This document shows positions 1-22,271 of a stretch of 33,471 nucleotides of DNA, in pieces. Position numbers and translations under genes: made by a program. Within the stretch, counting starts at the first letter, position 1. Each line of letters opens with the position of its first letter. The notes beneath the pieces are model-generated. The model did no database searches. It saw only the letters and a program-made list of their open reading frames with translations, and was not told the origin of the DNA. The stretch comes from Phycisphaerae bacterium. GTDB lineage: Bacteria > Planctomycetota > Phycisphaerae > Phycisphaerales > UBA1924. The stretch is taken from assembly GCA_016795005.1 (NCBI GenBank), contig JAEUIV010000057.1:1-33471 (forward strand). The letters run 5' to 3'.

Positions 1-2
1 AT

Positions 3-98
3 TCCGACCGCACCCACGAACAACTGAACACGATGCTCCCCAGGGGCGTACTCGATGTCATCACGAGGCGCGGCCTCTACCATCCGCACAACGACTGA
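3..98 (+). CDS. C-terminal fragment of an unidentified upstream gene
   Basis: An open frame enters from the left edge and ends at TGA 96-98. It gives about 31 residues (ends RRGLYHPHND). Third codon positions are almost all G or C, mostly C, like rimO just downstream, so this looks like real coding sequence rather than chance. The stop lies 10 bases before the ATG of the DUF3303-like gene, which suggests the two are co-transcribed. I do not recognise the family from this tail. The gene is cut by the window edge. Confidence 0.5.
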   Translation, partial: SDRTHEQLNTMLPRGVLDVITRRGLYHPHND

Positions 99-108
99 GA
101 CCACGCCC

Positions 109-378
109 ATGCTTTTCATGGTGATCGAGCACTTCGGCACAAACACGGAGGCCATCCGCGCTCGCTTCAAGTCCCGCGGCCGGCTCATGCCCGAGGGGGT
201 CGTCTACCACGGCAGTTGGATCGACGCCGAATCGGCCCGGTGCTTCCAGGTGATGGAGTCGGCGACGCGCGAACGGCTCGATGAATGGATCGCCGCATGG
301 TCCGATCTGGTCCGTTTCGAGGTTGTGCCGGTGCGGACCTCCGGCGAGTTCTGGGCCGAACGCGAACAATCCGCCTGA
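109..378 (+). CDS. DUF3303-like small protein
   Basis: This is an 89-residue protein starting MLFMVIEHF. An in-frame ATG 54 bases upstream exists, but it would overlap the preceding coding tail, and the MLFMVIEHF start matches how this family usually begins (established knowledge: short alpha/beta, ferredoxin-like single-domain proteins annotated DUF3303, function unknown). Visible marks are the opening beta strand, a central GVVYHGSWID segment, CFQVME, and a tryptophan-rich helix (DEWIAAWSDL) before the last strand FEVVPV. No signal peptide or membrane segment is seen. It sits between an upstream coding tail and rimO (31-base gap). The family call is by sequence feel only. Confidence 0.6.
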   Translation: MLFMVIEHFGTNTEAIRARFKSRGRLMPEGVVYHGSWIDAESARCFQVMESATRERLDEWIAAWSDLVRFEVVPVRTSGEFWAEREQSA

Positions 379-408
379 ATCGGCCCTGCTACACTTCCGC
401 TCTCCACG

Positions 409-2025
409 ATGACCAATGCCAAGAGCCAGAAAGCGCCCCGGTCCGCCGGGACGGGTGACATCCGCACCGTTTCCTTCGTCAGCCTGGGCTGTCCGAAGAA
501 TCTTGTCGATTCGGAAAAAATGCTCGGCCTCCTCGCGCAGGACGGCCTGCTTCCCGTCTCGCACGACCCCTCGTCGTCGGGTGACCCGACTGACGCCGTG
601 GTCATCAATACATGCGGCTTCCTCGAGGCCTCGAAGGACGAGTCCCTCTCCGTGATCCACGACGCCATCAGGCGGAAGGAAGCGGGGGAGGTCAAGCGAG
701 TCATCGTCGCGGGTTGCCTCGTCCAGCGTCACCGCGCCAAGATGCTCGAGTGGGCGCCGGGGATCGACGCCATGATCGGCGTCTTTGACCGCGACCACAT
801 CGTCCACGCGGTCCGAGGGGCCGCCCCCGAGCGAAACGTTCTCACGGCCGATGGTTCGCCGAAGTACTGGATCGCCGCCAATGCGCTCCAGGCCGCCAAG
901 GATCGCGGCATGAAAACCGCGGGGCTGACCGTCAACGGCAAGGACGGAAAGGGCATCGGCTACTTCGAGGATGACTCGGCCCGTCTCCGCCTCACGCCCC
1001 GACACTACGCCTACCTCCGCATCTCCGAAGGGTGCAATCAGAACTGCGCTTTCTGCACCATCCCGTCCATCCGCGGCAAGATGCGCAGCAAGCCGATCGA
1101 TCGCATCATCGCCGAGGCACGCGAACTCCTCGAGGACGGGGCCTTTGAACTCAACCTCATCGGCCAGGACACGACTTCCTATGGCGATGACATCGGCTTT
1201 TCCGGCGGTCTTCCCGCCATGCTCCGCGCCGTCAACGACGCCGTCGAACGTCTCTCACCCCAGGGCTGGGTCCGCCTCATGTACGCCTATCCCAGCACCT
1301 TCTCCGACGCGATGATCGATGCGATCGCCTCGCTCCCGCGCATCGTCAAGTACATCGATATCCCGCTCCAGCACGCCTCCAACAACATGCTCCGAGCGAT
1401 GCGCCGCCGCGTCACCGCCGAACACCAGCGCGAACTGATCCTCAAACTCCGCGAACGGATCCCGGGCATGGCGGTGCGCACAACATTCATCTCCGGCTTC
1501 CCCGGCGAATCCGAGGACGATCACGAGCAACTCATGGCCTTCGTCGATGAGATGGGGTTCGACGCCATGGGCGTCTTCGAGTATTCGCCCGAGGATCACA
1601 CTCCCGCCGGCACGATGGAAGCGGACCCCGCGCTCCGCGTCCCCGCCGAAGTGAAAACCCGCCGGCGCGCTGAACTCATGGAACTTCAGCAGGGGATCGC
1701 CTTCGAGCAGGCCGCCTTCGTCGCCTCCCACTTCGACGAGAAGCGTCCCGCGGAAACCGGGCACCGCTTCGACGTTCTCATCGACAAGCCCATGGCATCC
1801 GAGGGCCGGCCCACGGCGGGAGTCGGCGCCGGCGGCCGCCTCTACAAGGGACGAGCCTATTTCCAGGCCCCGGACATCGACAGCGTGATCTACGTCCAGT
1901 CAAGATCCCCGCTCGCGCCGGGCGAACTCGTCCGTTGCGTCATCGTCGCGGCGGACGGCTACGACCTGATCGCCACGCCCGTCGTGGACGTGGAGAAGCG
2001 CGTCACGCTGAATGTCATGCGCTGA
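409..2025 (+). CDS. rimO: Ribosomal protein S12 methylthiotransferase RimO
   Basis: RimO is a radical-SAM enzyme that adds a methylthio group to the conserved aspartate of ribosomal protein S12. The N-terminal MTTase domain carries three cluster cysteines, C28 (SLGCPKN), C69 (NTCGF) and C103 (AGCLVQ). The radical SAM motif C209-x3-C213-x2-C216 (EGCNQNCAFC) is followed by IPSIRGKMRS, typical of RimO rather than MiaB. A C-terminal TRAM domain begins around residue 440 (GRAYFQAPDIDSVIYV). The protein is 538 residues, about 90 longer than common RimO. Much of the excess is an insertion at roughly residues 141-190, between the MTTase domain and the RLTPRHYAYLRISEG segment that normally follows closely. 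The start has only a weak Shine-Dalgarno. It is convergent with dxs across a 47-base gap in which I see no terminator. Confidence 0.93.
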   Translation: MTNAKSQKAPRSAGTGDIRTVSFVSLGCPKNLVDSEKMLGLLAQDGLLPVSHDPSSSGDPTDAVVINTCGFLEASKDESLSVIHDAIRRKEAGEVKRVIVAGCLVQRHRAKMLEWAPGIDAMIGVFDRDHIVHAVRGAAPERNVLTADGSPKYWIAANALQAAKDRGMKTAGLTVNGKDGKGIGYFEDDSARLRLTPRHYAYLRISEGCNQNCAFCTIPSIRGKMRSKPIDRIIAEARELLEDGAFELNLIGQDTTSYGDDIGFSGGLPAMLRAVNDAVERLSPQGWVRLMYAYPSTFSDAMIDAIASLPRIVKYIDIPLQHASNNMLRAMRRRVTAEHQRELILKLRERIPGMAVRTTFISGFPGESEDDHEQLMAFVDEMGFDAMGVFEYSPEDHTPAGTMEADPALRVPAEVKTRRRAELMELQQGIAFEQAAFVASHFDEKRPAETGHRFDVLIDKPMASEGRPTAGVGAGGRLYKGRAYFQAPDIDSVIYVQSRSPLAPGELVRCVIVAADGYDLIATPVVDVEKRVTLNVMR

Positions 2026-2072
2026 ACTCGGAGACCGTGCATTCCGCCCGTGGCTCGCTCGTTGAAAAACAG

Positions 2073-4037
2073 TTAGGCGTGGACGCGCTTCGCCTTGACT
2101 TCAACCACGGGCGTCAACTCGCGCTCCCGGCCCGCCGCCGCGCGCCGGATCGTCGCCGCGATCGCCGCCGGATCAAGCCCGGCCTCCTTCAACTGCTCAT
2201 TCCGGCTGTTCTGATAGATCCACTCGTCCGGCAGCGACATCCGCGTCACCAGCCCCGCGTGCAGCCCCATCTCCGAAGCCGCTTCGACCACCGCCGCGCC
2301 GAAGCCGCCGTGAGGACCGTGGTCCTCGATCGTCACGATCGGAACTTCGCGTTCAAGCAGTGAACGGATCAGCGCCGCGTCCACCGGCTTCGCAAACCGT
2401 GCGTCGTACACGTTGACCCGGACCTCCGGCCCGAGCGTTTCCGCCGCCTTGAGCGCGTTCAGCACCATGGTGCCGAAACCCAGCACCGCGACATCCGGCT
2501 TCTCGCACTCGATCAGCGCCCGCGCCTTGCCCAACTCGAACGCCGGGCACGATCCGAAGGCCGCGAGCGCATCCGACACGTTGTCTCGCGGATACCGCAC
2601 CGCTGAAAGCCCCGCGTCGTAGGTCCGCATGAACTCCAGCGCCGCGACCAGCGACGGCTCGTCCGCCGCCGCCATGACCGCCGCCCGCGGCAGCACGCGC
2701 AGGATCGAGACATCACAGAACCCGTGATGCACCGCGCCGTCGCCGCCCACGAGGCCCGCCCGATCAAGGCACAGCCGCACGGCCAGACCCTGAAGCGAGA
2801 CCTCCTGGAACGCCTGGTCAAACGCCCTCTGGAGAAACGTCGAGTACACCGCGAAGAAAGGCTTCCACCCCGTCTTCGCCAGCCCGGCCATCATGTCGAG
2901 CGCGTGACTCTCGCAGATGCCGGTGTCGAACGAACGATCGGGGAACTTCGGGAGAACCTTGTCCAGCCCCGTTCCCCCGGGCATCGCGGCGGTGCATGCC
3001 ACCACCTTCGGATCGCGCGACATCATCTCGACCATCGCCTCGCCGAACGCGCTCGTGAAGGAGCGACCCTCTTTCTTGATTTCGACGCGGCACGAATCCG
3101 GGTCGTAGTTGAACGAGGCCGGCGAGTGGAACGTCGAGGCGTCGCCCTCCGTGAACCCGTACCCCTTCCCCTTCACCGTCTTGACGTGCAGCACCATCGG
3201 TCGATCAAAGTCCCGCGCCTCCGCCAGGAACTCGACCAGCGTCGGCAGGTCATGCCCGTCGATCGGGCCGATCGTCAGCAGCCCGAAATGCTCGAACCAG
3301 GCGTCTTCGCAGATCGTTGCCTTCGCCGCCTCGCCCATGCGGTGATACGCATCGCCGACCAGACCGCCTCCCGGGATGTTCTTGAGCATCCGTTTGGCCT
3401 TTTCCTTCATCCCCGAGTAGAGCGGATTGATCCGCACGCGGTCGAAGTACGCCGCCATCGCGCCCTGCGGCTTGCTGATCGACATCCCGTTGTCGTTGAG
3501 GATGACCAGGAACTGCCTCTTCAGCGTCCCCGCGTTGTTCAGCCCCTCCATCGCCACGCCGTTGACGATCGACGCATCCCCGATCAGCGTCACGACGCGA
3601 CGGCCGCTCTTGTTCGCGCCGGGATCGAACCCCTCGCCGTTCAGCGTGTCGCCGCGTGCCATCCCGACCGCGGTCGAGATCCCGGTCCCCGCGTGGCCGA
3701 CGCTGAAGAGGTCATACGCCGATTCGCGCGGCTCGGGGAACCCGGCCATCCCGCTCCGCGTTCTCAATTGACCCAGCATCCCCTGACGCCCCGTCAGCAA
3801 CTTGTGCGGGTAGCACTGGTGCCCGACATCAAAGAGCAGCCGATCGTGACCAAAGTCAAACACGTAGTGGAGCGCCACCGTCAGTTCGACGACCCCCAGA
3901 TTCGGCGCCAGGTGCCCGCCGGACTTCGAGACCTGATCGAAGATCGCGCCGCGGATCTCCTTGGAGACCTCCGCCAGTTCGTCGAGACTCAGTCGCTTCA
4001 GGTCCGCGGGGGTGTGAATCGTCGGGAGAAGAGCCAT
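2073..4037 (-). CDS. dxs: 1-deoxy-D-xylulose-5-phosphate synthase
   Basis: Dxs is the first enzyme of the MEP isoprenoid pathway. It condenses pyruvate and glyceraldehyde 3-phosphate using thiamine diphosphate. The start MALLPTIHTP is chosen over an upstream in-frame ATG because GGAG lies 6 bases before it and the family begins here; this gives 654 residues. Visible motifs are GGHLAPNLGVVELT and DVGHQCYPHKLLTGR at the N-terminus, SVGHAGTGIS, the TPP-binding GDAS...NDNGMSIS segment (GDA in place of the common GDG), a YSTFLQRAFDQ motif, and DRAGLVGGDGAVHHG in the pyrimidine domain. The next gene upstream on the same strand is the prenyl diphosphate synthase (55-base gap), so two isoprenoid steps are probably transcribed together. 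Confidence 0.95.
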   Translation of the reverse strand: MALLPTIHTPADLKRLSLDELAEVSKEIRGAIFDQVSKSGGHLAPNLGVVELTVALHYVFDFGHDRLLFDVGHQCYPHKLLTGRQGMLGQLRTRSGMAGFPEPRESAYDLFSVGHAGTGISTAVGMARGDTLNGEGFDPGANKSGRRVVTLIGDASIVNGVAMEGLNNAGTLKRQFLVILNDNGMSISKPQGAMAAYFDRVRINPLYSGMKEKAKRMLKNIPGGGLVGDAYHRMGEAAKATICEDAWFEHFGLLTIGPIDGHDLPTLVEFLAEARDFDRPMVLHVKTVKGKGYGFTEGDASTFHSPASFNYDPDSCRVEIKKEGRSFTSAFGEAMVEMMSRDPKVVACTAAMPGGTGLDKVLPKFPDRSFDTGICESHALDMMAGLAKTGWKPFFAVYSTFLQRAFDQAFQEVSLQGLAVRLCLDRAGLVGGDGAVHHGFCDVSILRVLPRAAVMAAADEPSLVAALEFMRTYDAGLSAVRYPRDNVSDALAAFGSCPAFELGKARALIECEKPDVAVLGFGTMVLNALKAAETLGPEVRVNVYDARFAKPVDAALIRSLLEREVPIVTIEDHGPHGGFGAAVVEAASEMGLHAGLVTRMSLPDEWIYQNSRNEQLKEAGLDPAAIAATIRRAAAGRERELTPVVEVKAKRVHA

Positions 4038-4092
4038 CCATTGCTCCAGGAGAGGGCGAGCCAACACTATAGAGTCAAGACGGGTATGAATC

Positions 4093-5043
4093 CTACTTTG
4101 TTCGTACGGCCAGGTAATCGCACAACTCAATCAGCCCGCCGGCCTTGTTCCCGTAGGGTTCCAGCGACTTTCGGGCCTCGGCGTGCAGACGCGAAACTTC
4201 AGCGCGTGCCGCAGCCACCCCAACCACCCCCGGATACGTCAACTTCCCCGCTTCGCTGTCTTTCCCCGTTCGTTTTCCCGCGTGCTCGGCGGTCTGCTGA
4301 ACGTCAACGAGATCGTCCACGATCTGGAACATCAGGCCGATCGCCTCACCGTAGGCCGTGATCGCCGTCATCGCCGCGGCATCCGACGATCCAACCCGCG
4401 CCAACCCGGCCAGCGCTCCCATCCGGCACGACGCGCGGATCAGCGCCCCCGTCTTGTTGAGGTGGACCCGCTCCAGCCGCGAGCGGTCCGAAAGCCCGGC
4501 CTCGAATCCGCCGAGTGTGTCCAGCACCTGCCCCGCGATCATCATGGTGGAGCCGACGGCCAACTCCCGGCACAGCCGCCCCGCGAGGGCCGGTTCCTGC
4601 CGGTCGCACAGCACCTGGAACGCCATGCTCATGAGACCGTCTCCGACCAGGATGGCCATCGCCTCGCCGTACTTCTTGTGCACCGTCGGCAGCCCGCGCC
4701 GCAGGTCGTCATTGTCGAGCGCCGGGAGATCATCGTGAACAAGGCTGAAGGCGTGGATCATCTCCACCGCCGCCGCGCTCGGCAGGGCGTCCTCCACCGA
4801 GCCGCCGACAACATCGCAGCATTGCATCGCGAGGATCGGCCTGAGGCGCTTCCCGCCGCCGAGGAGGGCGTACTCCGTCGCTTGCAACAGATTGCCCGGC
4901 AGCGACTGCCGCCGAAGCCACTCCGCCATGAACCCCTCGACGAGCGCGGCCATCGCGGTCGCCCCGCCGGGCGTCGTATCGGGACCGTTGGGTGGACTCA
5001 TGGCACCGGGCGTATCCAGGAGTGAATGACTCGATGGGGGCAA
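4093..5043 (-). CDS. ispA: Polyprenyl (farnesyl/geranylgeranyl) diphosphate synthase
   Basis: This is a trans-prenyl transferase that extends allylic diphosphates with isopentenyl diphosphate, using the C5 units made by the MEP pathway. The first aspartate-rich motif is HDDLPALDNDDLRRG, with the bacterial two-residue insertion, and the second is FQIVDDLVD. GGGKRLRP upstream binds the IPP diphosphate, and MIHAFSLVHDD is standard. The chosen start is a TTG at 5041-5043, because a strong GAGGAGAG lies 5 bases upstream; an ATG at 4999-5001 is the alternative and has no well-spaced ribosome site. Length is 316 residues. The product chain length (C15 or C20) cannot be decided from sequence alone. 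It lies directly upstream of dxs. Confidence 0.88.
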   Translation of the reverse strand: MPPSSHSLLDTPGAMSPPNGPDTTPGGATAMAALVEGFMAEWLRRQSLPGNLLQATEYALLGGGKRLRPILAMQCCDVVGGSVEDALPSAAAVEMIHAFSLVHDDLPALDNDDLRRGLPTVHKKYGEAMAILVGDGLMSMAFQVLCDRQEPALAGRLCRELAVGSTMMIAGQVLDTLGGFEAGLSDRSRLERVHLNKTGALIRASCRMGALAGLARVGSSDAAAMTAITAYGEAIGLMFQIVDDLVDVQQTAEHAGKRTGKDSEAGKLTYPGVVGVAAARAEVSRLHAEARKSLEPYGNKAGGLIELCDYLAVRTK

Positions 5044-5166
5044 ATCTCTCTCCTCGTCAGGTTCGGGACACTATACCTTCTGATGCCGGAATCACCGGAA
5101 AATCTCGGTACGCCGCTTCGAAGGCGCAGCGCCGACCACGCCCCGCGCGTCGCCGAGTCCAGCCGG

Positions 5167-7311
5167 TCACTTCGCCCCGGCATAAAAGCGCCTTGCATAG
5201 TCCGCCACCATGCGGTGCGAACTGAACTCGGCGCACACGCTCCGCATGCTCTCGGCCATCATCCGGCACCAGGCGCCCGGCACCCCGCGACGGTCGCGGC
5301 GATAGAAAAGCGGAATCACCTGGTCTTCCAGAGTGGCGTAGAGCGCGTCCGCGTCGTACCGATCCTGCCTCTTCCTGTCGGCGAACTGCTTCCCGCCGAT
5401 CACCCAGCCGTTCTTTCGGTTGAACGCTTCGGGCCACCAGCCGTCCAGGATCGAGCAGTTGATCCCGAGATTCAGGGGCGACTTCATCCCGCTCGTCCCG
5501 CTTGCTTCCATCGGCCTCACCGGGTTGTTCAGCCATACGTCGCATCCCGAGGTCAGCATCCGGCCCACGTGCATGTCATAGTTCTGGATCAGCAGCACGC
5601 GCCCGCGAAACTCCGGCGTGAGCGAGAACTCATGCAGCGTCCGCACAAACTCCTGCCCGCCACGATCCTGCGGGTGCGCCTTCCCCGCGAACACGAACTG
5701 CACCGGTCGGTCCGTGTTGCGCACCAGCCGCGCCAGCCGCTTGGGATCGGTGAAGATCAGTGGGGCGCGCTTGTAGGTAGCGAACCGGCGCGCAAACCCG
5801 ATCGTCAGCGCGTTCTCGTCCAAGGTGGCGCAGACTTCCGCAAGCAGCCGCGCCGCGTACTTCTCTTCAAAGTTGAACGCTGTCGCTTCGTCCGCCGAAC
5901 GCTGCCGGAGCCACGAGATCATCCGCTTTCTCAGTGTCTGTCGAAGCGTCCAGAGTTCCTCCTTCGGCACGCGCCCGACCCCTTTCCACCAGTCGTCTTC
6001 CGGGTCGGCGCCGTTCCATCGGGGCTTGAAATAGAGGTCGTAGAAGGGCCTCGCTTCGTCCGCGATCCATGATTCCGGGTGGACTCCGTTCGTCACCGAG
6101 CCGATCGGCACCTCTTCCGCTCGGGCGGCGGCGAAGACGCGCTTCCACATCCGCCGCGAGGTCTCGGCGTGCAGCCGCGACACGCCGTTGCTCCGCGCGC
6201 TCAGCCTCAGCGCCAGCACGGTCATGCAGAACGATTCCTTCTGATCCGTCTGGTCTTCGCGGCCGAAGGCGAGGAACTCCGACGCGTTCAGGCGCATCTG
6301 ATTCGGCATGCGACCGAGATACTTCATCACCAGCGCCGGATCAAAGCGGTCGTTGCCCTCCGGCACGGGCGTGTGTGTCGTGAACACCGACCGCCGACGG
6401 ACTTCATTGAGTGCGTGCCCGAAGCGCTTTCCGCCCGCGACGAGTCGGCGAAGCCGTTCGAGCGGCGCGAACGCGGCGTGACCTTCGTTCAGGTGGTACA
6501 CCGTCGGCGAAAGCCCGAGGGCGTCCAGCGCGTGCATGCCGCCGATGCCGAGCAGGATTTCCTGACGAATCCGGTAATCCGGGTCGCCGCCTCGATAGAG
6601 ATGATGGGTCAGGGCGCGAGCGGTCGGCGAGTTCGTCGGCAAGTCGGAATCAAGCAGAAACACCGGCACGCGCCCGACGGTCAGGCGCCAGATGCGGCAG
6701 CGGACCGTCTGCCGGCCGACGGGAAGGGAGATGAACTTTCCGGTGGATTCGATCGGAAGTTGCGAAAAATCCGGTGCCGGATAGACGACGCGCGTTTCGC
6801 CGAGTTTCGTGAGTTCCTGGCGGTAATAGCCGAACTTCCAGAGAATTCCGACGCCGACGAGCGGAACGCCGAGGTCGCTGGCGGACTTGATGTGGTCGCC
6901 GGCGAGGATTCCGAGTCCCCCGGCGTAGAGGGGGAGGGACTCGTGGATGCCGAACTCCATGCAGAAATAGGCGGTGAGTTGGCGTTTGCGGCTTGAAAAC
7001 CAGGTTTTTGAGGCGAGGTAGGCTTCGAGGGCGTGCTCGGCGGCGGCGAGCGCGGACAGGAAATCCGGGTCGGAGGACAGCGTTTGTGCGCGAGAACTCG
7101 ACAGATTGTTGAGGGTTGCGATGGGGTTGTGCGAGTTCGCGCGCCAGAGGGTCGGGTCCATCGATTCGAAGAGCCTGCGCGCGGCGGGGTTCCACGACCA
7201 CCAGAGGTTGTGCGCCAATGTGCGGATGCGTTCGCGCGTGACGGGCCACGGGGCGCCGTTTGCGCGCGCGGAGCCGGGTGGTCGGGCGGTCGGGTTGCGT
7301 GCGCGGGGCAT
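5167..7311 (-). CDS. glgP: Alpha-glucan (glycogen) phosphorylase, GT35
   Basis: The enzyme releases glucose 1-phosphate from glycogen-type alpha-1,4-glucans with a pyridoxal phosphate cofactor. The N-terminus carries the DUF3417-type segment (LAHNLWWSWNPAARRLFE), as in the short, thermophile-like branch of the family. The hallmark YFCMEFGIHESLPLYAGGLG and LAGDHIKSASDLGVPLVGVG follow. The cofactor lysine is K610 in EASGTSGMKSPLN. Length is 714 residues, shorter than the roughly 800-850 usual in this branch but with both ends and the catalytic core present. The ribosome site is weak. It faces resB divergently across 110 bases. The third-position base preference switches inside this gene, because the regional GC skew changes sign here. 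Confidence 0.92.
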   Translation of the reverse strand: MPRARNPTARPPGSARANGAPWPVTRERIRTLAHNLWWSWNPAARRLFESMDPTLWRANSHNPIATLNNLSSSRAQTLSSDPDFLSALAAAEHALEAYLASKTWFSSRKRQLTAYFCMEFGIHESLPLYAGGLGILAGDHIKSASDLGVPLVGVGILWKFGYYRQELTKLGETRVVYPAPDFSQLPIESTGKFISLPVGRQTVRCRIWRLTVGRVPVFLLDSDLPTNSPTARALTHHLYRGGDPDYRIRQEILLGIGGMHALDALGLSPTVYHLNEGHAAFAPLERLRRLVAGGKRFGHALNEVRRRSVFTTHTPVPEGNDRFDPALVMKYLGRMPNQMRLNASEFLAFGREDQTDQKESFCMTVLALRLSARSNGVSRLHAETSRRMWKRVFAAARAEEVPIGSVTNGVHPESWIADEARPFYDLYFKPRWNGADPEDDWWKGVGRVPKEELWTLRQTLRKRMISWLRQRSADEATAFNFEEKYAARLLAEVCATLDENALTIGFARRFATYKRAPLIFTDPKRLARLVRNTDRPVQFVFAGKAHPQDRGGQEFVRTLHEFSLTPEFRGRVLLIQNYDMHVGRMLTSGCDVWLNNPVRPMEASGTSGMKSPLNLGINCSILDGWWPEAFNRKNGWVIGGKQFADRKRQDRYDADALYATLEDQVIPLFYRRDRRGVPGAWCRMMAESMRSVCAEFSSHRMVADYARRFYAGAK
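6300..6650. other. GC-skew sign change, origin-like polarity
   Basis: Left of this point the plus strand carries more C than G, and right of it more G than C, regardless of gene strand. Hand counts on 60-base lines: 1381-1440 G15 C24, 5341-5400 G16 C24, 6181-6240 G15 C24, then 6601-6660 G24 C12, 6721-6780 G23 C10, 6961-7020 G23 C8, 22321-22380 G25 C15. The plus-strand rimO and minus-strand dxs are both C-rich on plus; the plus-strand resB and minus-strand amidohydrolase are both G-rich. A negative-to-positive switch is the sign expected at a replication origin. I find no DnaA-box cluster here and the point lies inside glgP, so the function is open. Confidence 0.45.
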
Positions 7312-7421
7312 CTCGGTTTCCGGTGTCGATTCGGCCGATTGTCGAACGATGTTCGAGTATATCGGCGTGGGTTCGCGGTTCCGCCTAAACTGCGGCGGTC
7401 CCCCTTCACCTTGGATTCTCG

Positions 7422-9956
7422 ATGCCGAAACCGTCGCCGACTCGAACTTCCGATCTTTCTGATTCGCTCTTCGGGCGTGGGCCTCGGCGCGGGCCGATCA
7501 CGCTGGTGCTGGATTGGCTGAGCAGCGTTCGTTTCGGGATTGTGCAGATGGTGGTTCTGTTCGTGTACTGCACGATCGGCTCGGCGGGGCTGATCTATCC
7601 CGAGTTGGGTCCGGGGCGATGGAATCCGTTGAACCCCGACGTGTGGCGTCACGACATGATCCGTCAGTGGCGTGTGTTCGAGTTGACGGAGTTCGAGTGG
7701 TTTCACACGCCGTTTTTCAACGCGATGATCGGTCTGCTGTGCGTTTCGCTGATCGTGACGACGTTCCGGCGGATCCGGTTCAACGCGCTGACGGCCGGGG
7801 TGTGGATGATCCACCTGGGGATCGTGCTGCTGTGCCTGGGTTCGTACGTGTACTTCGGGACGAAGTTCGAGGGGGATGCGCCGGTCATGCGGCGCGAGGT
7901 TCGCATCGAGGTTCCCGGCGCGCCGGCGTCGACGCTTCCGGTGATGCCCGGGAACGGCACGAGCGTGCGGACGGAGGCGGGCGAGTTCCGGTTCTCGATC
8001 GCGAGCATCGATCCGGCGTGGGAGTTGCGGAGCGAGGGGGATCTCGGAAAGACGGCGTACGCGGTGACGGTGGATATCCAGACGCCGAGCAGTCGCTTCA
8101 TGCGGCAGTTGCTGGCGGGGTATCCGCAGTACACGGAGGACGTGATCCCTGGGAAGGGGAGGGTGAAGAAGCTCCCCGAGTTCAACGGCGGGGCGCTGGT
8201 TGACTCGACGGTTCACCTCTCGCTGGAGGCGGCGGAGCAGAAGGATTTCTGGGTGAAGGACAGCGCCGCGATCGTGGCTCGTCGCGCGGGAGAGTCGGGG
8301 TGGTCGCAGCGGGTGATCCGCGGTCTGCCCCGGTACAACGATTACGTATCGGAGTTGAGCGATGTCTGGCCGAGCGCGGCGGGGGAGGACGATCGGCCGC
8401 TGACGCGGCATGTGCTGGACCTGGAGGTGCGTCCGGGTGAGGCGGGGGGGGGCGACCCGCTGGCGGGTCTGGACGTCCGCGTGACGGGATTCCTGCGGTA
8501 CGCGGTGATGAAGCGTGACTTTGCTCCGGGCGGCCCGGTGCTGAATCCGGTGGCGGAGATCACGATGACGACTCCCGACGGACGGCCGTTCCGCGAGACT
8601 CTGGTGGCGTTTGATGAGACTCGGCGGTCCGCGTATGACGGGCGATTGTCGTTCGAGTGGGTGGATCGTGCGGAGGAGTTGCCTCGATTCCTGGACGTGG
8701 GGGTCCGTGAGTTGGTGCTGCGTGTTCCCGCCGCGGGGATTGATGAGACGGTTCGTTTCCAGTTGGCGGACCTGGCGGCTGCGGATCGGCCGATGGTTCC
8801 TCTGGGTGAATCGGGGTGGCAGTATCGGATTCGTGAGGCGAAGGACCGTCTCCCGTTGTCGAGCGGGCGCTCCGTGACGCTGCTGCTGGTCGACCTGGTG
8901 AATCCCGAGGGGAAGCGATTGACGAGGTGGGTGTTCGAGGATCCTTCGCGGAACCGAGACAATCCCGAGACGGCGGCGGAGGAGCCGCATACGCCGCAGG
9001 TTCCCGATGTGCGTCTGGAGACGGTGTACCGTCCCGGTCGGCCGCTGAGCACGATCTCGATTGTTTCGGGTCCGGGTGGGGTGGGCCTGCATGTATTCCA
9101 CGATGACGGGGCGGGGGGGCGTGTGCAGCGCACGTTCGCGCCCGGCGAGCCGGTCGAGATTCTTTATGGGATCCGGTTGGTGGTGAACCGCGTGATGCCG
9201 GACGCGGTCGAGGCGGAGAAGCCCGTGATCATTCCGAGGCGTCAGCGTGACAAGGACTCCGATTCCGTGCAGGCTTTTGCGTTGGTGCGTGTGGAGTTGT
9301 CACGGGACGGATGGCGTGATTCGCGCTGGATTCCGTTCCACCGTTACACGTTCGATGAACCCTTCGAGCCGATCGGCGTGCTGTCGAGGTACGAGCCGGC
9401 GCTGGTGTCGCTGCCGGACGGGAGTGAGATTGAGTTGGCGGTGGGTCGTGAACGGCGGGCGTTGCCCTATCCGGTGCGTCTGGAGGACTTTGTCCTGACG
9501 TCCAATGTCGGCGGATTCACGGGCCGGACGTCGAGCGTGCGCGACTGGACGAGCATTGTTCGATTCCGTGACGGGGACGTGCTGAGCGAAGCGATCTCGA
9601 TCAGCACGAACAACCCGGGGACGTTCCGCGGGATGTGGTTTTTCCAGTCGTACTGGGACCCGCCGCGGGCGGCGCGTTTTGCCGGGGATGTTCCGTCGCA
9701 GGGTTTGAACTTCACGGGTCTCGGTGTGGGCAACCGTCACGGGGTGTACACGCAGCTGGCGGGCTGCTGCGTGTCGATCGCGGGGATGATCTATGCGTTT
9801 TATGTGAAGCCTATTGTTCGCCGACGTCGTCGTCGTCACGTGATGGCGGAGATGGAGGCCGGTCGATTGCCGCGTCGGTCGGCGGTTCCCGGTCTGGATG
9901 AGACGCCGATCCGCGATGGTTCGCTGTCGTCGGCGCGCGGTCGGGAGGAGCCCTGA
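7422..9956 (+). CDS. ResB-like cytochrome c biogenesis protein
   Basis: The ResB/Ccs1 family works with CcsA in system II to deliver and attach heme to c-type cytochromes outside the cytoplasmic membrane. The N-terminus has about three membrane segments (DWLSSVRFGIVQMVVLFVY near residues 30-55, FNAMIGLLCVSLIV near 102-117, WMIHLGIVLLCLGSYVYF near 127-144). A large extracytoplasmic domain of some 620 residues follows, then a last membrane segment (GCCVSIAGMIYAFYV) and a basic tail. Histidines WFHTPFF and WMIHLG lie at membrane edges and could be heme ligands (inference). At 844 residues it is well above the common 450-600. The stop codon overlaps the ccsA start by one base (TGATG), so the pair is translationally coupled. 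Confidence 0.8.
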   Translation: MPKPSPTRTSDLSDSLFGRGPRRGPITLVLDWLSSVRFGIVQMVVLFVYCTIGSAGLIYPELGPGRWNPLNPDVWRHDMIRQWRVFELTEFEWFHTPFFNAMIGLLCVSLIVTTFRRIRFNALTAGVWMIHLGIVLLCLGSYVYFGTKFEGDAPVMRREVRIEVPGAPASTLPVMPGNGTSVRTEAGEFRFSIASIDPAWELRSEGDLGKTAYAVTVDIQTPSSRFMRQLLAGYPQYTEDVIPGKGRVKKLPEFNGGALVDSTVHLSLEAAEQKDFWVKDSAAIVARRAGESGWSQRVIRGLPRYNDYVSELSDVWPSAAGEDDRPLTRHVLDLEVRPGEAGGGDPLAGLDVRVTGFLRYAVMKRDFAPGGPVLNPVAEITMTTPDGRPFRETLVAFDETRRSAYDGRLSFEWVDRAEELPRFLDVGVRELVLRVPAAGIDETVRFQLADLAAADRPMVPLGESGWQYRIREAKDRLPLSSGRSVTLLLVDLVNPEGKRLTRWVFEDPSRNRDNPETAAEEPHTPQVPDVRLETVYRPGRPLSTISIVSGPGGVGLHVFHDDGAGGRVQRTFAPGEPVEILYGIRLVVNRVMPDAVEAEKPVIIPRRQRDKDSDSVQAFALVRVELSRDGWRDSRWIPFHRYTFDEPFEPIGVLSRYEPALVSLPDGSEIELAVGRERRALPYPVRLEDFVLTSNVGGFTGRTSSVRDWTSIVRFRDGDVLSEAISISTNNPGTFRGMWFFQSYWDPPRAARFAGDVPSQGLNFTGLGVGNRHGVYTQLAGCCVSIAGMIYAFYVKPIVRRRRRRHVMAEMEAGRLPRRSAVPGLDETPIRDGSLSSARGREEP

Positions 9957-11689
9957 TGTTCTGGCGACGCTGGACTTGGTTTGTGATCGGCGTGTTGTCC
10001 GCCTCGGTGCTCGCGGGGGCGGTGGCGGCGATGGTGCTGCGTTCGGGCGGCGCGGCGCCGGGCGAGAGGGCGGAGGGTTCCTTTGTCCGCGCGGTGGATC
10101 TTTCTCCCCTGGACCGTTCGGCGGTGTGGAACGAGGGGCGGCTGAAGTCATTTGACGCATTTGCAACGGAGATGTTGTCGTACATCAGCGGCCGGTCGCG
10201 GGTGTTCGGGCAGCCGACGGACTTCACGTACCTTGACATGGTGTTCCGGGGCGAGCGCTACGCGGCGGCGCCGGTCATCTACATCAAGAACAAGGAGATG
10301 AGGGGGCAACTGGCGGCGGCGCTCGAGTCCGCCTCGGCGATGACGCGCGAGGAGGGGGAGGCGTTCTTCAAAAGCGGGATGATCTCGGAGCGGCAGCTGT
10401 CGCACCCGGAGAGCGAGGGGCTGATCCGTCGGTGGTCGATGGACATGGTGCGGACGGCGAAGCACGCGGACGCGATCATGAGCGCCCGTGGGCTGAGGAG
10501 GCCGGAGGTTCTGCTGGATCAGTTGCAGATGATTCCGCCGCCTTCGGGGCGTTCGGATCATCCGTGGCTGAGCCTGGGTGAGATGTGGCAACCGGGCGGG
10601 ATGATGCGGCCGGCGGACGCGGAGATACCCGGCCTGGACGCTGGTCTGCGGGCGGAGTTGCGGGGGTCGATGGAGTCGTTGTCGCGTTCGTGGCGTGCGC
10701 TGGACGCGGCGGGTGTGAACTCGGCGGTGGAGCGGCTGGCGTCCGTTCTTTCGAGCGTGGCTCCCTCGGTGTACCCGGAGCCTGCGCGGATGGCGCTGCA
10801 GTCGTACTACTTCCGGGCGCAGAACATGACGTGGGTGTGGCTTGTTTACTTCGTGAGCCTGATTTTCCTGGTGATGTCGGTGGCGTACCGCTGGGAGGCG
10901 GCGCGGGGGCTGGGGATGGGGTTCTTCGCGGTGGCGTTCGTGCTGCACACGGTGGCGCTGGGCTGGCGGTGGTACGTGGCGGGGCGGTGGCCCAACTCGA
11001 ACATGTTCGAGGCGGTGACGACGAGCGTGTGGCTGGGGACGATCGCGGTGCTGGTGCTGGAGTACGCGGCGCGTCGGACGCCGATGCGGAACCTCTTTGC
11101 GCTGGGCGGGGCGGCGGCGTCGATGTGCGCGCTGATGGCGGCGCACTATGTTCCGCAGTTGAACGCGAGCATCAACAACATGATGCCGGTGCTGCACGAC
11201 CTGTGGCTGTACATCCACACGAACGTGATCATCGCGTCGTATGCGCTGATCGCGATGGCGTCCGTGACGGCGGTTCTCTACCTGGTCCACCGGATGCTGG
11301 GGGGGACGGCGTCGTACGCGCGCGTGGGGGGCGCGGCATCGCTGATCGAGAGCGCGACGCCGGGGTTATCGCGGCGGGTGGGGCTGTCCGAGGTGTTTGA
11401 CGGCGCGACGATGGTGCTGATGGAGTTGTCGTTCGTGCTCTTGTGGGCGGGGATCGTGATGGGCGCGATCTGGGCCGATCACTCGTGGGGGAGGCCCTGG
11501 GGTTGGGACCCGAAGGAGGTGTTCGCGTTGAACACGTTCCTGGTGTTCCTGGTGCTGGTCCACGTGAGGCTGAAAGTGCGCGACAAGGGTCTGTGGACGG
11601 CGTTGCTGGCGATCGCGGGGTGCGGGGTGATGCTGTTCAACTGGATCGTGATCAACTTTGTCATCAGCGGGCTGCACTCGTACGCGTGA
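9956..11689 (+). CDS. ccsA: Cytochrome c biogenesis protein CcsA
   Basis: CcsA is a heme-handling membrane protein of system II cytochrome c maturation. The signature tryptophan-rich motif is clear (SWGRPWGWDPKEVFAL near residues 508-524), along with the surrounding conserved histidines: VLHTVALGWRWYVAGRWPNSN, LHDLWLYIHTNVIIASYA and VHVRL. One membrane segment (residues 5-26) is followed by a roughly 250-residue extracytoplasmic region and then about eight membrane segments from residue 285 to the end. Ordinary CcsA proteins are 300-400 residues and lack so long an N-terminal part; here the protein has 577. The start overlaps the ResB-like stop (TGATG). The N-terminal part between residues 30 and 280 has no motif that I recognise. 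Confidence 0.88.
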   Translation: MFWRRWTWFVIGVLSASVLAGAVAAMVLRSGGAAPGERAEGSFVRAVDLSPLDRSAVWNEGRLKSFDAFATEMLSYISGRSRVFGQPTDFTYLDMVFRGERYAAAPVIYIKNKEMRGQLAAALESASAMTREEGEAFFKSGMISERQLSHPESEGLIRRWSMDMVRTAKHADAIMSARGLRRPEVLLDQLQMIPPPSGRSDHPWLSLGEMWQPGGMMRPADAEIPGLDAGLRAELRGSMESLSRSWRALDAAGVNSAVERLASVLSSVAPSVYPEPARMALQSYYFRAQNMTWVWLVYFVSLIFLVMSVAYRWEAARGLGMGFFAVAFVLHTVALGWRWYVAGRWPNSNMFEAVTTSVWLGTIAVLVLEYAARRTPMRNLFALGGAAASMCALMAAHYVPQLNASINNMMPVLHDLWLYIHTNVIIASYALIAMASVTAVLYLVHRMLGGTASYARVGGAASLIESATPGLSRRVGLSEVFDGATMVLMELSFVLLWAGIVMGAIWADHSWGRPWGWDPKEVFALNTFLVFLVLVHVRLKVRDKGLWTALLAIAGCGVMLFNWIVINFVISGLHSYA

Positions 11690-11729
11690 GCGCGATCGGG
11701 ACGATCGGGCGGGCGAGGGGGCGGGGGGT

Positions 11730-12374
11730 TCAGCGCTTGCGCCGGAGCGCGATCGGGAGGAGCGGTGTGAGGAGAGCGAGGGTGCCGGCGCCGGGGATGA
11801 TGGCGATGTTGTCGGCTTCGACCCTGATGCTCGTTCCCGTGCCCGCGAGTGCGTCGGGGACGTTGTAGAGGAGTTGGACGCTGCCGATGTTTGAGAAGAT
11901 GGTGTTGAAGTCGGAGCCTTCGAACGAGACCCAGCCGGGGTAGGCGGAGCTGATCGGGATGGTGACGGTCGTCCATTGGCCTGGAGAGACTGGGGCGAAG
12001 TCGAGTCCGATGGCGCCGGGGAAGTTGAATGGCGTGACGAGCCTTGCGCCGAAGTTCATCGGGATCGGGGCGGAGTGCCTGACGGAGAAGGTGAGCGCCG
12101 TGACGCCCTCCGTGATCCAGTTTCCGATGAAGGCTCCGTTGCTGGCGTTGTTTGCGGCCTGGCCTCGGAGGGCGATGACGACGCCAAAGGAAGCGGCGTT
12201 GACGTTTGTTTCGGCGGCGATGTTTCCGGCGGGGTCGTAGGTCGCAGGTCCGGCGGGGCCGGTCCAGTTGGCGGCGTTGGTGTCGAACGTCTCGGTGAAG
12301 GGGATGATGGCGGCGTGTGCGGACGAGGCGATTCCGGCGGCGACGGCCGCGATGACGGTGGTACGGATCAACAT
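11730..12374 (-). CDS. Secreted protein with PEP-CTERM-like tail
   Basis: The 214-residue exported protein starts MLIRTTVIAAVAAGIASSAHA, a good signal peptide with an AHA cleavage site. AGGGAG lies 11 bases upstream of this ATG, so I reject the longer in-frame start. The mature part opens IPFTETFDTNAANWTG, a beta-rich pattern seen at the start of many secreted carbohydrate-binding-like proteins (inference). The C-terminus is IIPGAGTLALLTPLLPIALRRKR: a proline motif, a hydrophobic stretch and a basic end, the layout of PEP-CTERM sorting tails. No enzyme motif is seen. It is convergent with ccsA (40-base gap). Confidence 0.75.
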   Translation of the reverse strand: MLIRTTVIAAVAAGIASSAHAAIIPFTETFDTNAANWTGPAGPATYDPAGNIAAETNVNAASFGVVIALRGQAANNASNGAFIGNWITEGVTALTFSVRHSAPIPMNFGARLVTPFNFPGAIGLDFAPVSPGQWTTVTIPISSAYPGWVSFEGSDFNTIFSNIGSVQLLYNVPDALAGTGTSIRVEADNIAIIPGAGTLALLTPLLPIALRRKR

Positions 12375-12477
12375 GATTTCTGATCTCCCTGTGCGTCCGA
12401 AGTCCTGAACGGATTTTTCCACGACGCCCGGTCTTCGGTGTGGGCGTCGCGGGTTTAAGTGTATGCGTTGGAGGTTG

Positions 12478-13350
12478 TCAGGGGGCGGGGAGCGTCCAAT
12501 CCTGTGTCGGGGCCTTCGGCGTCCAGCGGCGCATGTCGTCCGCGTCGGTGAACGTGAGCGTCTGGGCGTTGCCGTCCATCATCGTGAAGACGGCGCGGCG
12601 TGCGAACATGAATGCGACGTTTCCGGTGTCGGCGCCCGTGAAGGCGGGATCGGGCTGGCGTGCCCAGGTTCGCTGGATGAGCGATGGTGGCTTGATGGAG
12701 AAGTAGCCGTCCTCGGAGTTCGAGACGGCGACGGTGTTGCGCGAGGACGCGAAGGTGATGAGTTTGGCGGGCTGCCGGGCGTCGGTGTCCCGCTGGACGT
12801 ACCAGCGTGGTCCCCACCTGGTCTGGGTGCGTTGCTGGATGACGGGGCTGGGGGAGAAGGCGTAGAAGTCGGAGCTGCCGCCGACGAAGGTCTGGTTGAG
12901 GCCGAATCTCGGCAGGAGTGAGACGGCGTAGTCGGCGCGTTCATCGCCCCAGATGGAGCGCATGGCTTCGCGCTGGGTTTCGGAACGGAAGACGATGTCG
13001 ACGGCGTTTTCCATGTAAGGCATGAGGCGCCACGGGTAGCGGCGCGCGATCTCTCCGGCGAGTCGTTTGCCGGTGGAGTTTCGGGCGACGATCTGCCCGG
13101 TGCGGACCATTTCATCGCTCGGGAACCCCACGAGGACGAGGCCGCGGTTGTCGTTCATGTACATCTGATGCGCGAGTGAGAACTGCCTGGCGGCGGAGAG
13201 TTCTCCCGTGACGAGGGCGCACTGCCTCGCCTTGGCGAGGGCGGGGAGGAGGATGGCGATGAGGACCGCGATGATCGCCACGGAGACGAGGAGTTCGATG
13301 AGCGTGAAGGCGCGCGAGTCTGGGCGGTTCTGAGCGTGGGAGCGGTTCAT
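12478..13350 (-). CDS. Type II secretion-type pseudopilin, prepilin-cleavage protein
   Basis: The N-terminus has a prepilin peptidase site, SRAFTLIELLVSVAIIAVL, with alanine instead of the usual glycine before the methylated phenylalanine. The hydrophobic helix and LLPALAKARQ follow, as in the large family of planctomycete pseudopilin-like secreted proteins. The start MNRSHAQ places the site about 16 residues in; a longer in-frame start is possible but unneeded. The body (290 residues) has the SLAHQMYMNDNRG segment typical of this group. No H-x9-DG motif is seen at the C-terminus, though MMDGNAQTLTFTDAD resembles the region that normally carries it. Role unknown: surface or fibre component, not necessarily type II secretion itself. 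Confidence 0.8.
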   Translation of the reverse strand: MNRSHAQNRPDSRAFTLIELLVSVAIIAVLIAILLPALAKARQCALVTGELSAARQFSLAHQMYMNDNRGLVLVGFPSDEMVRTGQIVARNSTGKRLAGEIARRYPWRLMPYMENAVDIVFRSETQREAMRSIWGDERADYAVSLLPRFGLNQTFVGGSSDFYAFSPSPVIQQRTQTRWGPRWYVQRDTDARQPAKLITFASSRNTVAVSNSEDGYFSIKPPSLIQRTWARQPDPAFTGADTGNVAFMFARRAVFTMMDGNAQTLTFTDADDMRRWTPKAPTQDWTLPAP

Positions 13351-13501
13351 ATTCTCTGCTCGGTGCTTGACCCCGGAGTGGTTGCGGTCAACTATAGGAA
13401 TCCGACCCGCCCGGTGCAATCGGTTTCACGGTTCTGGAGCGATGAAAACGCTGTTTTCGGGCGGATCGGCGGTGCGGCCCGGCGAAAAAAGGGAGTAGAG
13501 G

Positions 13502-14572
13502 ATGAAGTTATCCACAATATCCGGTCTGTGTTCGGTGGCGGCGGTATCGGCGGCTTCGGGGCAGGTGGTCAGCCTGTCGTTCGATGCGCCAACGATCGAC
13601 CGCTGGGTGTACCCGTTCGCGAGCAGCGCGGGGTACGAGTTCGAGGCGAAGACGTTCAGTTCGCTCGGCCAGGAGACGGCGTTTTTTCCGATCACGTTCG
13701 ATCAGCGTGACGGCCAGATCATGGTCGGGTTTGATTTCCCCGCGAATCTTCCGCCGGGTCGCGGAGCGTGCGGATATCGCGTGATCTCGGCGGTGCTGAC
13801 GCTGAAGGTGAGCAATCACAACGTTTACAAGTATGACCCGACGTACGACGGCTGGCAGACTTACCTGAATGGGGCCGGGGATGCCGACGGTCGGCCGATC
13901 GAGTTGTATGGCGCCGCGTTTCGCAACGGGTGGATGGCTTGCCGGATTGATCCTTCGATGCCCGCGTTGAACCAGTTTCCGTGCTATTGGGAGGGTTCGC
14001 CGGAGCGCGCGGCCCCGCCGTTCGGTCCCGGCTCGTTCCCGACGCGCGACACTCGGTACGCCTATGCGACGGATTACGCCGGTCGCGTGGAGCGCGATGT
14101 CTCGAACAATGTGCGCGACCAGTTTGACTCGAAGCCGTTCGCGGTGGGGCAGATCGGGGGCCTTGCGCCGGGCGCGCTGGTGCCGGTGGACCGTGACACG
14201 GTGTTTACGCTGAACGTGAATGACGCGGATGTGCAGGCGTACCTTCGTCGCGCGTGCGACGCGGGGCTTGTGCGGCTGCTGGTGACGTCGCTCCAGCAGG
14301 CGTCGGCGGGGGGGCCCGGTCCTGGGGGCGGTTCTTTTGCGAGTTTCTATACGAAAGAGATCGGGATCGACGGCTTCGGGCCGAGGTTCTCGATTTCGGT
14401 CCGTCTGACATCGGCGGGTGACGCGGACGGAAGCGGGGGGGTTGATTTCGCGGACATCACGTCGGTGCTGACGAACTGGGGTCTGGTCGGCCCGGATGGC
14501 GATGCGAACTGCGACGGGGTGGTGAACTTTTCCGACATCACCGAGGTGCTCACGAACTGGGGGTCGTTGTGA
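13502..14572 (+). CDS. Secreted protein with C-terminal dockerin-like repeats
   Basis: The 356-residue exported protein has a signal peptide (MKLSTISGLCSVAAVSAASGQ) and a GGGAG/AGAGG ribosome site just before the ATG. The middle is not a family I can name; it includes a FPITFDQRDGQIMVGFDFP segment and aromatic-rich beta-type sequence. The last 50 residues are two dockerin-type calcium-binding repeats, GDADGSGGVDFADITSVL and GDANCDGVVNFSDITEVL, each ending TNWG. This repeat pair closes many secreted proteins of Phycisphaerae, where the partner is not known to be a cellulosome cohesin (established pattern, function uncertain). It is divergent from the pseudopilin gene (151 bases between). Confidence 0.8.
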   Translation: MKLSTISGLCSVAAVSAASGQVVSLSFDAPTIDRWVYPFASSAGYEFEAKTFSSLGQETAFFPITFDQRDGQIMVGFDFPANLPPGRGACGYRVISAVLTLKVSNHNVYKYDPTYDGWQTYLNGAGDADGRPIELYGAAFRNGWMACRIDPSMPALNQFPCYWEGSPERAAPPFGPGSFPTRDTRYAYATDYAGRVERDVSNNVRDQFDSKPFAVGQIGGLAPGALVPVDRDTVFTLNVNDADVQAYLRRACDAGLVRLLVTSLQQASAGGPGPGGGSFASFYTKEIGIDGFGPRFSISVRLTSAGDADGSGGVDFADITSVLTNWGLVGPDGDANCDGVVNFSDITEVLTNWGSL

Positions 14573-14596
14573 GGCTCGGGAGATGGAGGTGGATGT

Positions 14597-15286
14597 TCAG
14601 CGGATCATGAGGAGGCGGAAGTTTCCGTTCTCGATGGCGACGTCGAGGGTGTGCAGTTTGAGTTCCTGGGTCATGGCGACGGGGGCGGTGAGTCGGAACT
14701 GGTTTCGGCCGATGGTCTTGAGATTGACTCCGGGGGTCTGGTCGCCCATCGGGAACGTCGCGAAGAGCGCGGCGATGTCGGCGCGTCGCTGGACGAGGAA
14801 GTTGATGGCTTCGCGCGGGTCGCGGCCTTGCCTGCGGTATTCGGCCTTGGTTTCTTCGGCGATGACCTGATCGAGGAGGAGGTCGTACTCCTTCTTGTCG
14901 AGTGTGGTCATGACGTGGTACATGACATCGGCGGGTGAACGTGCGAAGAGGGTGAAGGTGCCGTCGGGGTTTTTTCGTCGGAGGCCGAGCGCTTCGCCGG
15001 GCGTGAGCGGTTCGCGGGCGGGGTTGTTCCGCGCGTCGGGATCGGGCGGCGGCTCGTAGCCCGGGAATGACCGCAGGACGTTGTCCCACGGTCCCGCGGC
15101 GTTCCGAGCGGCGGTCTGCTTCGCGGGATCGGATCGCGTCTCGTCGATGACGGGCGACTGTGCTCCGGGGAGGTCAAAGAGCCCGCCGCGCGCGGAGACG
15201 ACGCGCTCCTCGGATGCGCAGGCGGTGATGACGAGGATGAGCGCGGCGGTCGCGGAGGCGATGGGGTGCTTGTGCGGCGCGGTCAT
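14597..15286 (-). CDS. Predicted lipoprotein, translationally coupled to nadB
   Basis: The start MTAPHKHPIA gives 229 residues with a lipoprotein signal: hydrophobic ATAALILVI then the lipobox I-T-A-C, cysteine at residue 23. The ATG overlaps the nadB stop codon (ATGA), so translation is coupled. The mature part begins with a low-complexity linker (proline and aspartate rich), then a helical region (SPADVMYHVMTTLDKKEYDLLLDQVI) and a beta-rich end (LKLHTLDVAIENGNFRLLMIR). I do not recognise a family. Convergent with the dockerin protein, 24 bases apart. Confidence 0.72.
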   Translation of the reverse strand: MTAPHKHPIASATAALILVITACASEERVVSARGGLFDLPGAQSPVIDETRSDPAKQTAARNAAGPWDNVLRSFPGYEPPPDPDARNNPAREPLTPGEALGLRRKNPDGTFTLFARSPADVMYHVMTTLDKKEYDLLLDQVIAEETKAEYRRQGRDPREAINFLVQRRADIAALFATFPMGDQTPGVNLKTIGRNQFRLTAPVAMTQELKLHTLDVAIENGNFRLLMIR

Positions 15287-16983: not shown

Positions 16984-17095
16984 TCGCGGTCAAGTGTAGG
17001 TGAGCGGCCGATTCGTCCGTTCGTGGCGGTCGCGGTCGAGATCCGGGTCGGCGAGGCTCGTTGCCCCTTGTGAATGGTGGCTGCGGATTCGATGG

Positions 17096-17986: not shown

Positions 17987-18017
17987 GGCCTGACTCTCCT
18001 CACGAATCCTTGTGCGG

Positions 18018-22261: not shown

Positions 22262-22271
22262 ACGTCGGTGT

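What the first reader, a model, noticed from the sequence alone, without database searches (positions are those of the whole stretch)
6300..6650. Origin-like GC-skew inversion inside an intact glgP gene
The plus strand is C-rich from 1 to about 6.3 kb and G-rich from about 6.6 kb to the end, whichever strand the genes use. The negative-to-positive direction is the one at a replication origin; the opposite would mark the terminus. Because it lies inside one uninterrupted gene, a recent inversion breakpoint is hard to defend. Yet there is no dnaA, dnaN or gyrB and no DnaA-box cluster near by. It may be an unusual origin location, or the true origin is close by and the edge is blurred.
Basis: partly seen in the sequence, partly recalled or inferred. 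Interest (0 to 1): 0.5.

Follow-up and report, generated by a model that had tools for sequence, protein, structure and literature searches.

The report
Many origin-like switches per bacterial chromosome
The base-composition switch inside this gene looks like one of dozens of similar switches along the chromosomes of a little-known bacterial family, which hints that these bacteria may start copying their DNA at many places, as archaea and eukaryotes do, instead of at one.

Summary
G versus C on the plus strand flips inside the intact glgP gene (all bases: 6595; fourfold-degenerate sites: 6666-6714, skew -0.34 to +0.59), whichever strand genes use. It is not the chromosome's single origin: dnaA and dnaN lie on other contigs, and another own contig, C187, has an equally sharp upward flip. 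A same-family genome held as one 3.61-Mb contig (G036), read without gaps over 1-920 kb, shows a sawtooth: 20 upward jumps of at least 0.2 against 4 downward, with near-linear decline between jumps. Simulated inversions did not give this asymmetry (0 of 400 runs), simulated multi-origin chromosomes did, and controls outside the family lack it. The shape is that of human skew N-domains, whose upward jumps mark origins. Best reading: chromosomes of this Phycisphaerae-like family are replicated from roughly 25-35 sites per round, and the glgP flip is one such site. Replication itself was not measured. No general motif was found; DnaA boxes sit at a few jumps only. The window's right arm does not decline over 27 kb, and same-genus G001 lacks the jump.

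The parts
6345..6715 (.). upward GC-skew jump (C-rich to G-rich plus strand), inside glgP
   Evidence: changepoint 6595 (6345-6610) with all bases; 6675 (6666-6714) at fourfold sites
1..6344 (.). C-rich left arm, mean skew about -0.12
6716..33471 (.). G-rich right arm, mean skew about +0.2, no decline within the contig
5167..7311 (-). glgP (glycogen/starch phosphorylase with DUF3417), intact, holds the jump
   Evidence: ORF, PF00343 and PF11897, relatives
2073..5043 (-). dxs and polyprenyl synthase genes, left of glgP; dxs has the same orientation relative to glgP in G002
7422..11689 (+). resB- and ccsA-like genes, conserved next to glgP in G001, G002, G011 and G026
13508..13516 (+). the only perfect DnaA box in the window, 6.9 kb from the jump, no skew step at it

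Best explanation
The flip inside glgP is a place where the usual direction of replication forks reverses, that is, an initiation site, and it is one of many on this chromosome. In this family each round of replication would start at some 25-35 places. Forks leaving a site expose the lagging-strand template, C is lost to T there, and the plus strand becomes G- and T-rich to the right and C-rich to the left. Forks from neighbouring sites meet at variable places in between, which gives the slow decline. Shown: the flip, its independence of gene strand, further upward jumps in the own genome, and the sawtooth with sharp upward jumps and slow declines in a same-family genome. Inferred: that skew reports fork direction here, that the jumps are initiation sites, and that the glgP jump is of the same kind. 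Not known: the initiator. DnaA boxes sit at a few jumps, so my guess is a mixture of DnaA-box sites and sites set by transcription, R-loops or recombination.
For: Sharp upward jumps against few downward ones in G036: 20 to 4 at 0.2, 12 to 1 at 0.3. 17 of 18 inter-jump stretches over 15 kb decline, 8 of them with r of -0.9 or beyond. Mean profile of 12 strong jumps is a symmetric N that decays to zero in 24-28 kb. Same plus-strand fourfold skew in neighbouring genes of opposite strands: r = 0.70 (n = 296) in G036, 0.81 (n = 99) in the own sample. Own genome: 3 upward, 0 downward jumps in 348 kb, or 2 to 0 without the window. Jump sum of 6.94 in a quarter of G036 against a maximum of 0.77 per chromosome for one origin. 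Simulations: 0 of 400 single-origin-plus-inversion runs match, 80-origin runs do. Skew left of dnaA in C163 is positive for 26 kb, against a single origin at dnaA. In G024 the step near dnaA fades to zero in about 30 kb. Genes point away from jumps slightly more often, 283 of 492.
Against: No replication data. No shared motif, GC dip or gene type at jumps. The window's right arm stays near +0.24 for 27 kb without decline. G001 (same genus) and G002 have no jump at glgP; mraZ is not at a jump in G036. Asymmetry intervals for G015 and G024 include zero. Only one genome was read at length. Single-changepoint fits at fourfold sites also give downward shifts in the own contigs, up to -0.55 in C144. 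Simulated multi-origin skewness (1.96) is above that of G036 (1.31). Natural multi-origin bacterial chromosomes are not established.
Confidence: 0.64

Rival explanations
1. Single-origin chromosome with inversions: a segment of a replichore was turned round and one breakpoint lies at or in glgP, for example by recombination between phosphorylase paralogues.
For: Gene order left of glgP differs from G001, G002 and G011. A second phosphorylase is on C180. The left arm has weaker skew than the right, as if still relaxing.
Against: Inversions make as many sharp downward as upward jumps: G036 has 20 to 4, own contigs 3 to 0, and 0 of 400 simulations match. dxs and glgP have the same relative orientation in G002. 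The flip is about 1.4 kb inside glgP, not at the order change. glgP aligns evenly with its relatives, and the C180 paralogue is only about 41-45% identical.
Confidence: 0.15
2. The sawtooth comes from a strand-asymmetric process other than replication initiation (directional repair or recombination around fixed breaks, transcription, or selected oriented motifs).
For: No origin-like sequence at most jumps. Jumps often lie inside genes, 15 or 16 of 20 by my ORF calls (one search lists 16 as inside an ORF, one of which, 7635, is at an overlap of two called ORFs in a low-GC gap).
Against: Neighbouring plus- and minus-strand genes have the same plus-strand skew at fourfold sites, so gene direction is not the cause. 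The fourfold-site skew is too large for a selected motif (inference). Resection at breaks would expose the other strand and give the opposite sign (inference); break-induced replication would give the observed sign but is itself replication from that place.
Confidence: 0.13
3. Assembly artefact: contig C51 joins two unrelated pieces, and G036 is a concatenated draft.
For: Both are assemblies of unknown provenance; reads were not available. G000 is fragmented, 225 contigs.
Against: The join would have to fall inside an intact gene. dxs on the left is 90% identical to G001 and resB on the right 73%, so both sides belong to the lineage. Random joins would give equal numbers of ups and downs. Two further own contigs show jumps.
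Confidence: 0.08

Closest known systems
Skew N-domains of the human genome (PMC3320577; passages read)
   Same: Abrupt upward jumps border segments whose skew declines linearly; jumps read as initiation zones, the slope as a gradient of fork polarity.
   Different: Human domains are megabase-sized and eukaryotic; here jumps are about 46 kb apart on average in a bacterial chromosome. Here there are no timing data.
Multi-origin archaeal chromosomes such as Sulfolobus and Haloferax (PMC3269012 passages)
   Same: Several skew polarity changes on one prokaryotic chromosome.
   Different: Archaea have about two to four origins, often next to orc1/cdc6 genes (recalled); here there would be dozens, without an initiator gene beside them.
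Bacteria proposed to have more than one origin from skew or DnaA boxes (Xia 2012, PMC3269012, passages; Gao 2015, PMC4403523, whole text)
   Same: Several local skew minima on one bacterial chromosome.
   Different: Those are one or two extra candidates or irregular plots in AT-rich genomes, open to rearrangement as an explanation; here there is a regular one-sided sawtooth in a GC-rich genome.
Constitutive stable DNA replication from oriK sites in E. coli rnhA or recG mutants (recalled, no call)
   Same: Dispersed initiation without DnaA-box clusters.
   Different: RNase HI is found in 10 of 10 genomes searched and a long recG match in 8 of 8, 4 of them over the curated cut-off, so loss of these is not the cause.

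Membership tests
Classical bacterial oriC (DnaA type) | negative-to-positive GC-skew switch | tested here: met
Classical bacterial oriC (DnaA type) | cluster of DnaA boxes at the switch | tested here: not met
   nearest single-mismatch box at 7801, perfect box at 13508
Classical bacterial oriC (DnaA type) | dnaA, dnaN or gyrB near by | tested here: not met
   dnaA domains on C163 and C129, dnaN on C61; none in the window's Pfam-scanned ORFs
Classical bacterial oriC (DnaA type) | only one such switch on the chromosome | tested here: not met
   C187 and C23 in the own genome; 20 jumps in 920 kb of G036
Skew N-domain border (multi-origin chromosome) | sharp upward jumps without matching sharp downward jumps | tested here: met
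   G036 20 to 4 and 12 to 1; own sample 3 to 0
Skew N-domain border (multi-origin chromosome) | linear decline between jumps | tested here: inconclusive
   met in G036 (17 of 18 stretches), not seen in the window's right arm over 27 kb; C106 declines from +0.16 to about -0.1 over 29 kb
Skew N-domain border (multi-origin chromosome) | forks diverge at the jumps (timing, fork direction or read depth) | not testable with these tools
   no reads or experiments at hand
Inversion breakpoint in a single-origin chromosome | upward and downward sharp jumps in equal number | tested here: not met
Inversion breakpoint in a single-origin chromosome | orientation of flanking genes changed at the flip relative to relatives | tested here: not met
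   dxs and glgP in the same relative orientation in G002; only one informative relative

The most novel reading that the evidence does not exclude
A lineage of Planctomycetota (Phycisphaerae-like) replicates a single bacterial chromosome from dozens of initiation sites in every round, in the manner of eukaryotes. Site positions differ between genera, the sites often lie inside genes and are mostly free of DnaA-box clusters, and the dnaA-linked origin is only one among many.
Probability: 0.5. Interest if true: 0.95.

Novelty: new variant of a known kind. Interest (0 to 1): 0.85.

Why it matters
One origin per chromosome is among the firmest rules of bacterial biology. A natural bacterial lineage with many origins would show that the rule is not forced by bacterial replication or segregation, and would give a case in which to study how DnaA-type initiation is coordinated or bypassed. 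It would also upset methods that use GC skew or origin-to-terminus read depth to find origins and to estimate growth rates in metagenomes. The claim can be tested at once with existing metagenome reads.

Tried and rejected
Shared sequence at jumps: all-against-all blastn of 20 jump flanks, exact k-mer enrichment, and 10- and 12-mers with mismatches gave nothing clearly better than a random control set. GTACCAA (4 of 15 copies within 170 bp of a jump) and CCGGAAAC looked enriched, but I picked them out of thousands of k-mers. GTACCAA is absent from the stretch with the independent 1.80-Mb jump, from the window and from C187, and CCGGAAAC is not at any of those three jumps.

GC dip at jumps: clear only at 7635 and 454420 in G036, no dip in the mean profile. 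tRNA near jumps: none of 10 within 3 kb. Rfam: SRP RNA, a TPP riboswitch and a tRNA in 6 sources, none at a jump. Gene boundaries: median distance 202 against 278 bp for random positions, p = 0.19.

DnaA boxes: of 8 perfect boxes in sequence that I held, 2 meet a local upward-step rule within 250 bp (C187; G036 587732), and a third (C163, beside dnaA) just misses it with a step of 0.13; 7 of 300 random G036 positions meet it. A lead, not a proof; the rule was set after I had seen the boxes.

Loss of RNase HI or RecG as a cause: rejected. RNase HII matches are weak throughout, outside the family too. Conserved position: mraZ, the gene at the C187 jump, is at 800 kb in G036, away from the listed jumps. 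Slopes in fixed 8-kb blocks were not significant in any set (best p = 0.06, in 920 kb of G036, in 40 kb of G002 and, with the opposite sign, in G056). A single origin that wanders in evolution: rejected because the jump sum is too large.

Full report
WHAT THE WINDOW IS. The window is the whole of contig C51 (33,471 bases) of a fragmented genome, G000, of 3.12 Mb in 225 contigs, 87% complete. The closest titled glgP relatives are planctomycetes, 4 of the best 6 named Phycisphaerae, Phycisphaerales or Phycisphaeraceae, so I call the family Phycisphaerae-like; its name is not known to me. The genes are ordinary: miaB-like, dxs, a polyprenyl synthase, glgP, resB, ccsA, later ybaB, dnaX and SRP RNA (short gene names are mine, from the Pfam matches).

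The plus strand is C-rich to about 6.3 kb and G-rich from about 6.7 kb. At fourfold-degenerate sites one changepoint falls at 6675 (support 6666-6714), -0.34 on the left and +0.59 on the right, with a log-likelihood gain of 414. With all bases it falls at 6595 (6345-6610). All 4 genes left of glgP have negative and all 20 right of it positive plus-strand fourfold skew, on either strand; AT skew at these sites is negative in all 20 right-hand genes, as loss of C to T on an exposed plus strand would give. The gene is open and aligns evenly with relatives.

IT IS NOT THE ONLY ORIGIN-LIKE PLACE. The two DnaA-domain genes are on C163 and C129 and dnaN on C61. Another own contig, C187, first looked at because it held a DnaA box, has a jump of +1.01 at fourfold sites, in or just upstream of mraZ. 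A smaller one (+0.42) is in C23, taken by regular sampling. In 26 own contigs or parts, 348 kb of 3.12 Mb, the 3-kb/0.25 rule finds 3 upward and 0 downward jumps. The window was handed to me for its jump, so the unbiased count is 2 to 0. Single-changepoint fits at fourfold sites also give downward shifts, up to -0.55 in C144, mostly with wide support as in a gradual decline. Left of dnaA in C163 the skew is positive or near zero for 26 kb, which a single origin beside dnaA does not allow.

THE SAWTOOTH IN A RELATIVE. G036, same family, is held as one contig of 3.61 Mb. I sampled 20 stretches and then read 1-920 kb without gaps. There are 20 upward jumps of at least 0.2 and 4 downward, or 12 and 1 at 0.3. 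Of 18 stretches longer than 15 kb between jumps, 17 decline and 8 do so with r of -0.9 or beyond; the stretches were cut at selected jumps, which favours a decline. The mean profile over the 12 strongest goes from -0.11 to +0.18 between adjacent 200-bp bins and decays to zero about 24-28 kb away on both sides. Fourfold skew of minus-strand genes tracks that of neighbouring plus-strand genes (r = 0.70, n = 296; own sample r = 0.81, n = 99), so gene direction is not the cause. Genes point away from jumps a little more often, 283 of 492.

CONTROLS. The skewness of 3-kb skew differences, with bootstrap intervals, is 1.31 [0.82, 1.67] in G036, 1.10 [0.28, 1.55] in own contigs (0.86 [0.04, 1.27] without the window), 0.88 and 0.65 in 100-kb blocks of same-family G015 and G024 with intervals that include zero, 0.01 [-0.44, 0.32] in 200 kb of G056 (another family of the order) and 0.13 [-0.29, 0.44] in those of the 80 glgP loci that are at least 10 kb long, 1305 kb in all. 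Two 50-kb stretches of E. coli K-12 gave -0.61 and -0.67, with no 3-kb difference beyond 0.2. In 400 simulated single-origin chromosomes with inversions and relaxation none had 12 ups with at most one down, and none reached skewness 1.31. In 100 simulated 80-origin chromosomes the means were 9.0 ups and 0.02 downs, with skewness 1.96 [1.46, 2.45], somewhat above G036. The parameters of both models were my choice.

HOW MANY INITIATIONS. If skew is proportional to fork polarity (argued for human DNA in PMC3320577, passages), a jump equals twice the maximal skew times the firing frequency. The 20 jumps sum to 6.94 and the maximal 4-kb skew is 0.385, which gives 9.0 initiations per 920 kb per round, or 6.5 from jumps of 0.3 or more; extrapolated to 3.61 Mb, about 35 or 25. 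A single origin, even one that wanders in evolution, gives a sum of at most 0.77 for the whole chromosome. So fork direction would have to flip many times in one round, unless skew means something else here.

WHAT MARKS THE SITES. No shared motif, GC dip, tRNA or gene type was found. Genes at 10 jumps that I scanned include recA, cinA, a laccase-like gene, a GH127 enzyme, ppx-like and ctaA-like genes. Of 8 perfect DnaA boxes in held sequence, 2 sit within 250 bp of an upward step by a fixed rule and a third, beside dnaA in C163, just misses it; 7 of 300 random positions qualify. In G024 a step from -0.07 to +0.12 lies about 2.7 kb downstream of the dnaA domain with a one-mismatch box at it, and the skew returns to zero within about 30 kb. 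So the dnaA-linked origin seems to be one of many. The glgP jump has no box near it.

INVERSION AND CHIMERA. In G002, dxs and glgP lie on one contig in the same orientation (21.4 and 60.7 kb of C142), as in the window, so the junction looks like loss or movement of intervening DNA and not like an inversion. dxs is 90% identical to G001 and resB 73%: both sides are from this lineage. G001 and G002 have no jump at glgP, so the site is young or has moved.

LITERATURE. In eight searches, of which I read the listings, I saw no paper on a sawtooth or N-shaped skew in a bacterium nor on many origins in Planctomycetota; the library lacks most subscription papers and preprints. Gao 2015 (PMC4403523, whole text) states that one origin is the bacterial norm and lists putative double origins. 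Xia 2012 (PMC3269012, passages) argued for several origins in some bacteria and warned of other causes of polarity changes. Human N-domains (PMC3320577, passages) are the closest pattern.

VERDICT. The flip is real and origin-like, but it is one of many. Multi-origin replication is the best reading of the family's sawtooth, with the glgP flip as one site (0.64). The weak points: only one genome was read at length, the window's own right arm does not decline, no initiator sequence was found, and replication was not measured.

Noticed in passing
L012 10535-11053 (G000:C187): Second sharp upward skew flip of the own genome, at the mraZ promoter and gene, with a perfect DnaA box at 10567.
   Followed up: partly
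G000 C163 and C129; G036, G015, G024, G051, G056: All six genomes searched carry two genes with a Bac_DnaA domain, one strong (216 to 233 bits) and one weaker (142 to 170 bits).
   Followed up: no
L216 7732-9105 (G036 587.7-589.1 kb): A perfect DnaA box 195 bp from an upward skew jump that lies near the start of recA.
   Followed up: partly
C163 27.5-28.4 kb (L008 7540-8395): Small upward step (+0.06 to +0.20) next to dnaA with a perfect DnaA box at 27919 and a one-mismatch box at 27591; may be the classical oriC.
   Followed up: partly
ten genomes: RNase HII matches are weak and partial in all of these planctomycete genomes (9 of 10 matched, 3 over the cut-off), while RNase HI is clear in 9 of 10 and weak in one.
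   Followed up: no
window 25026-27340: ybaB, dnaX and the small SRP RNA lie together on the minus strand.
   Followed up: no
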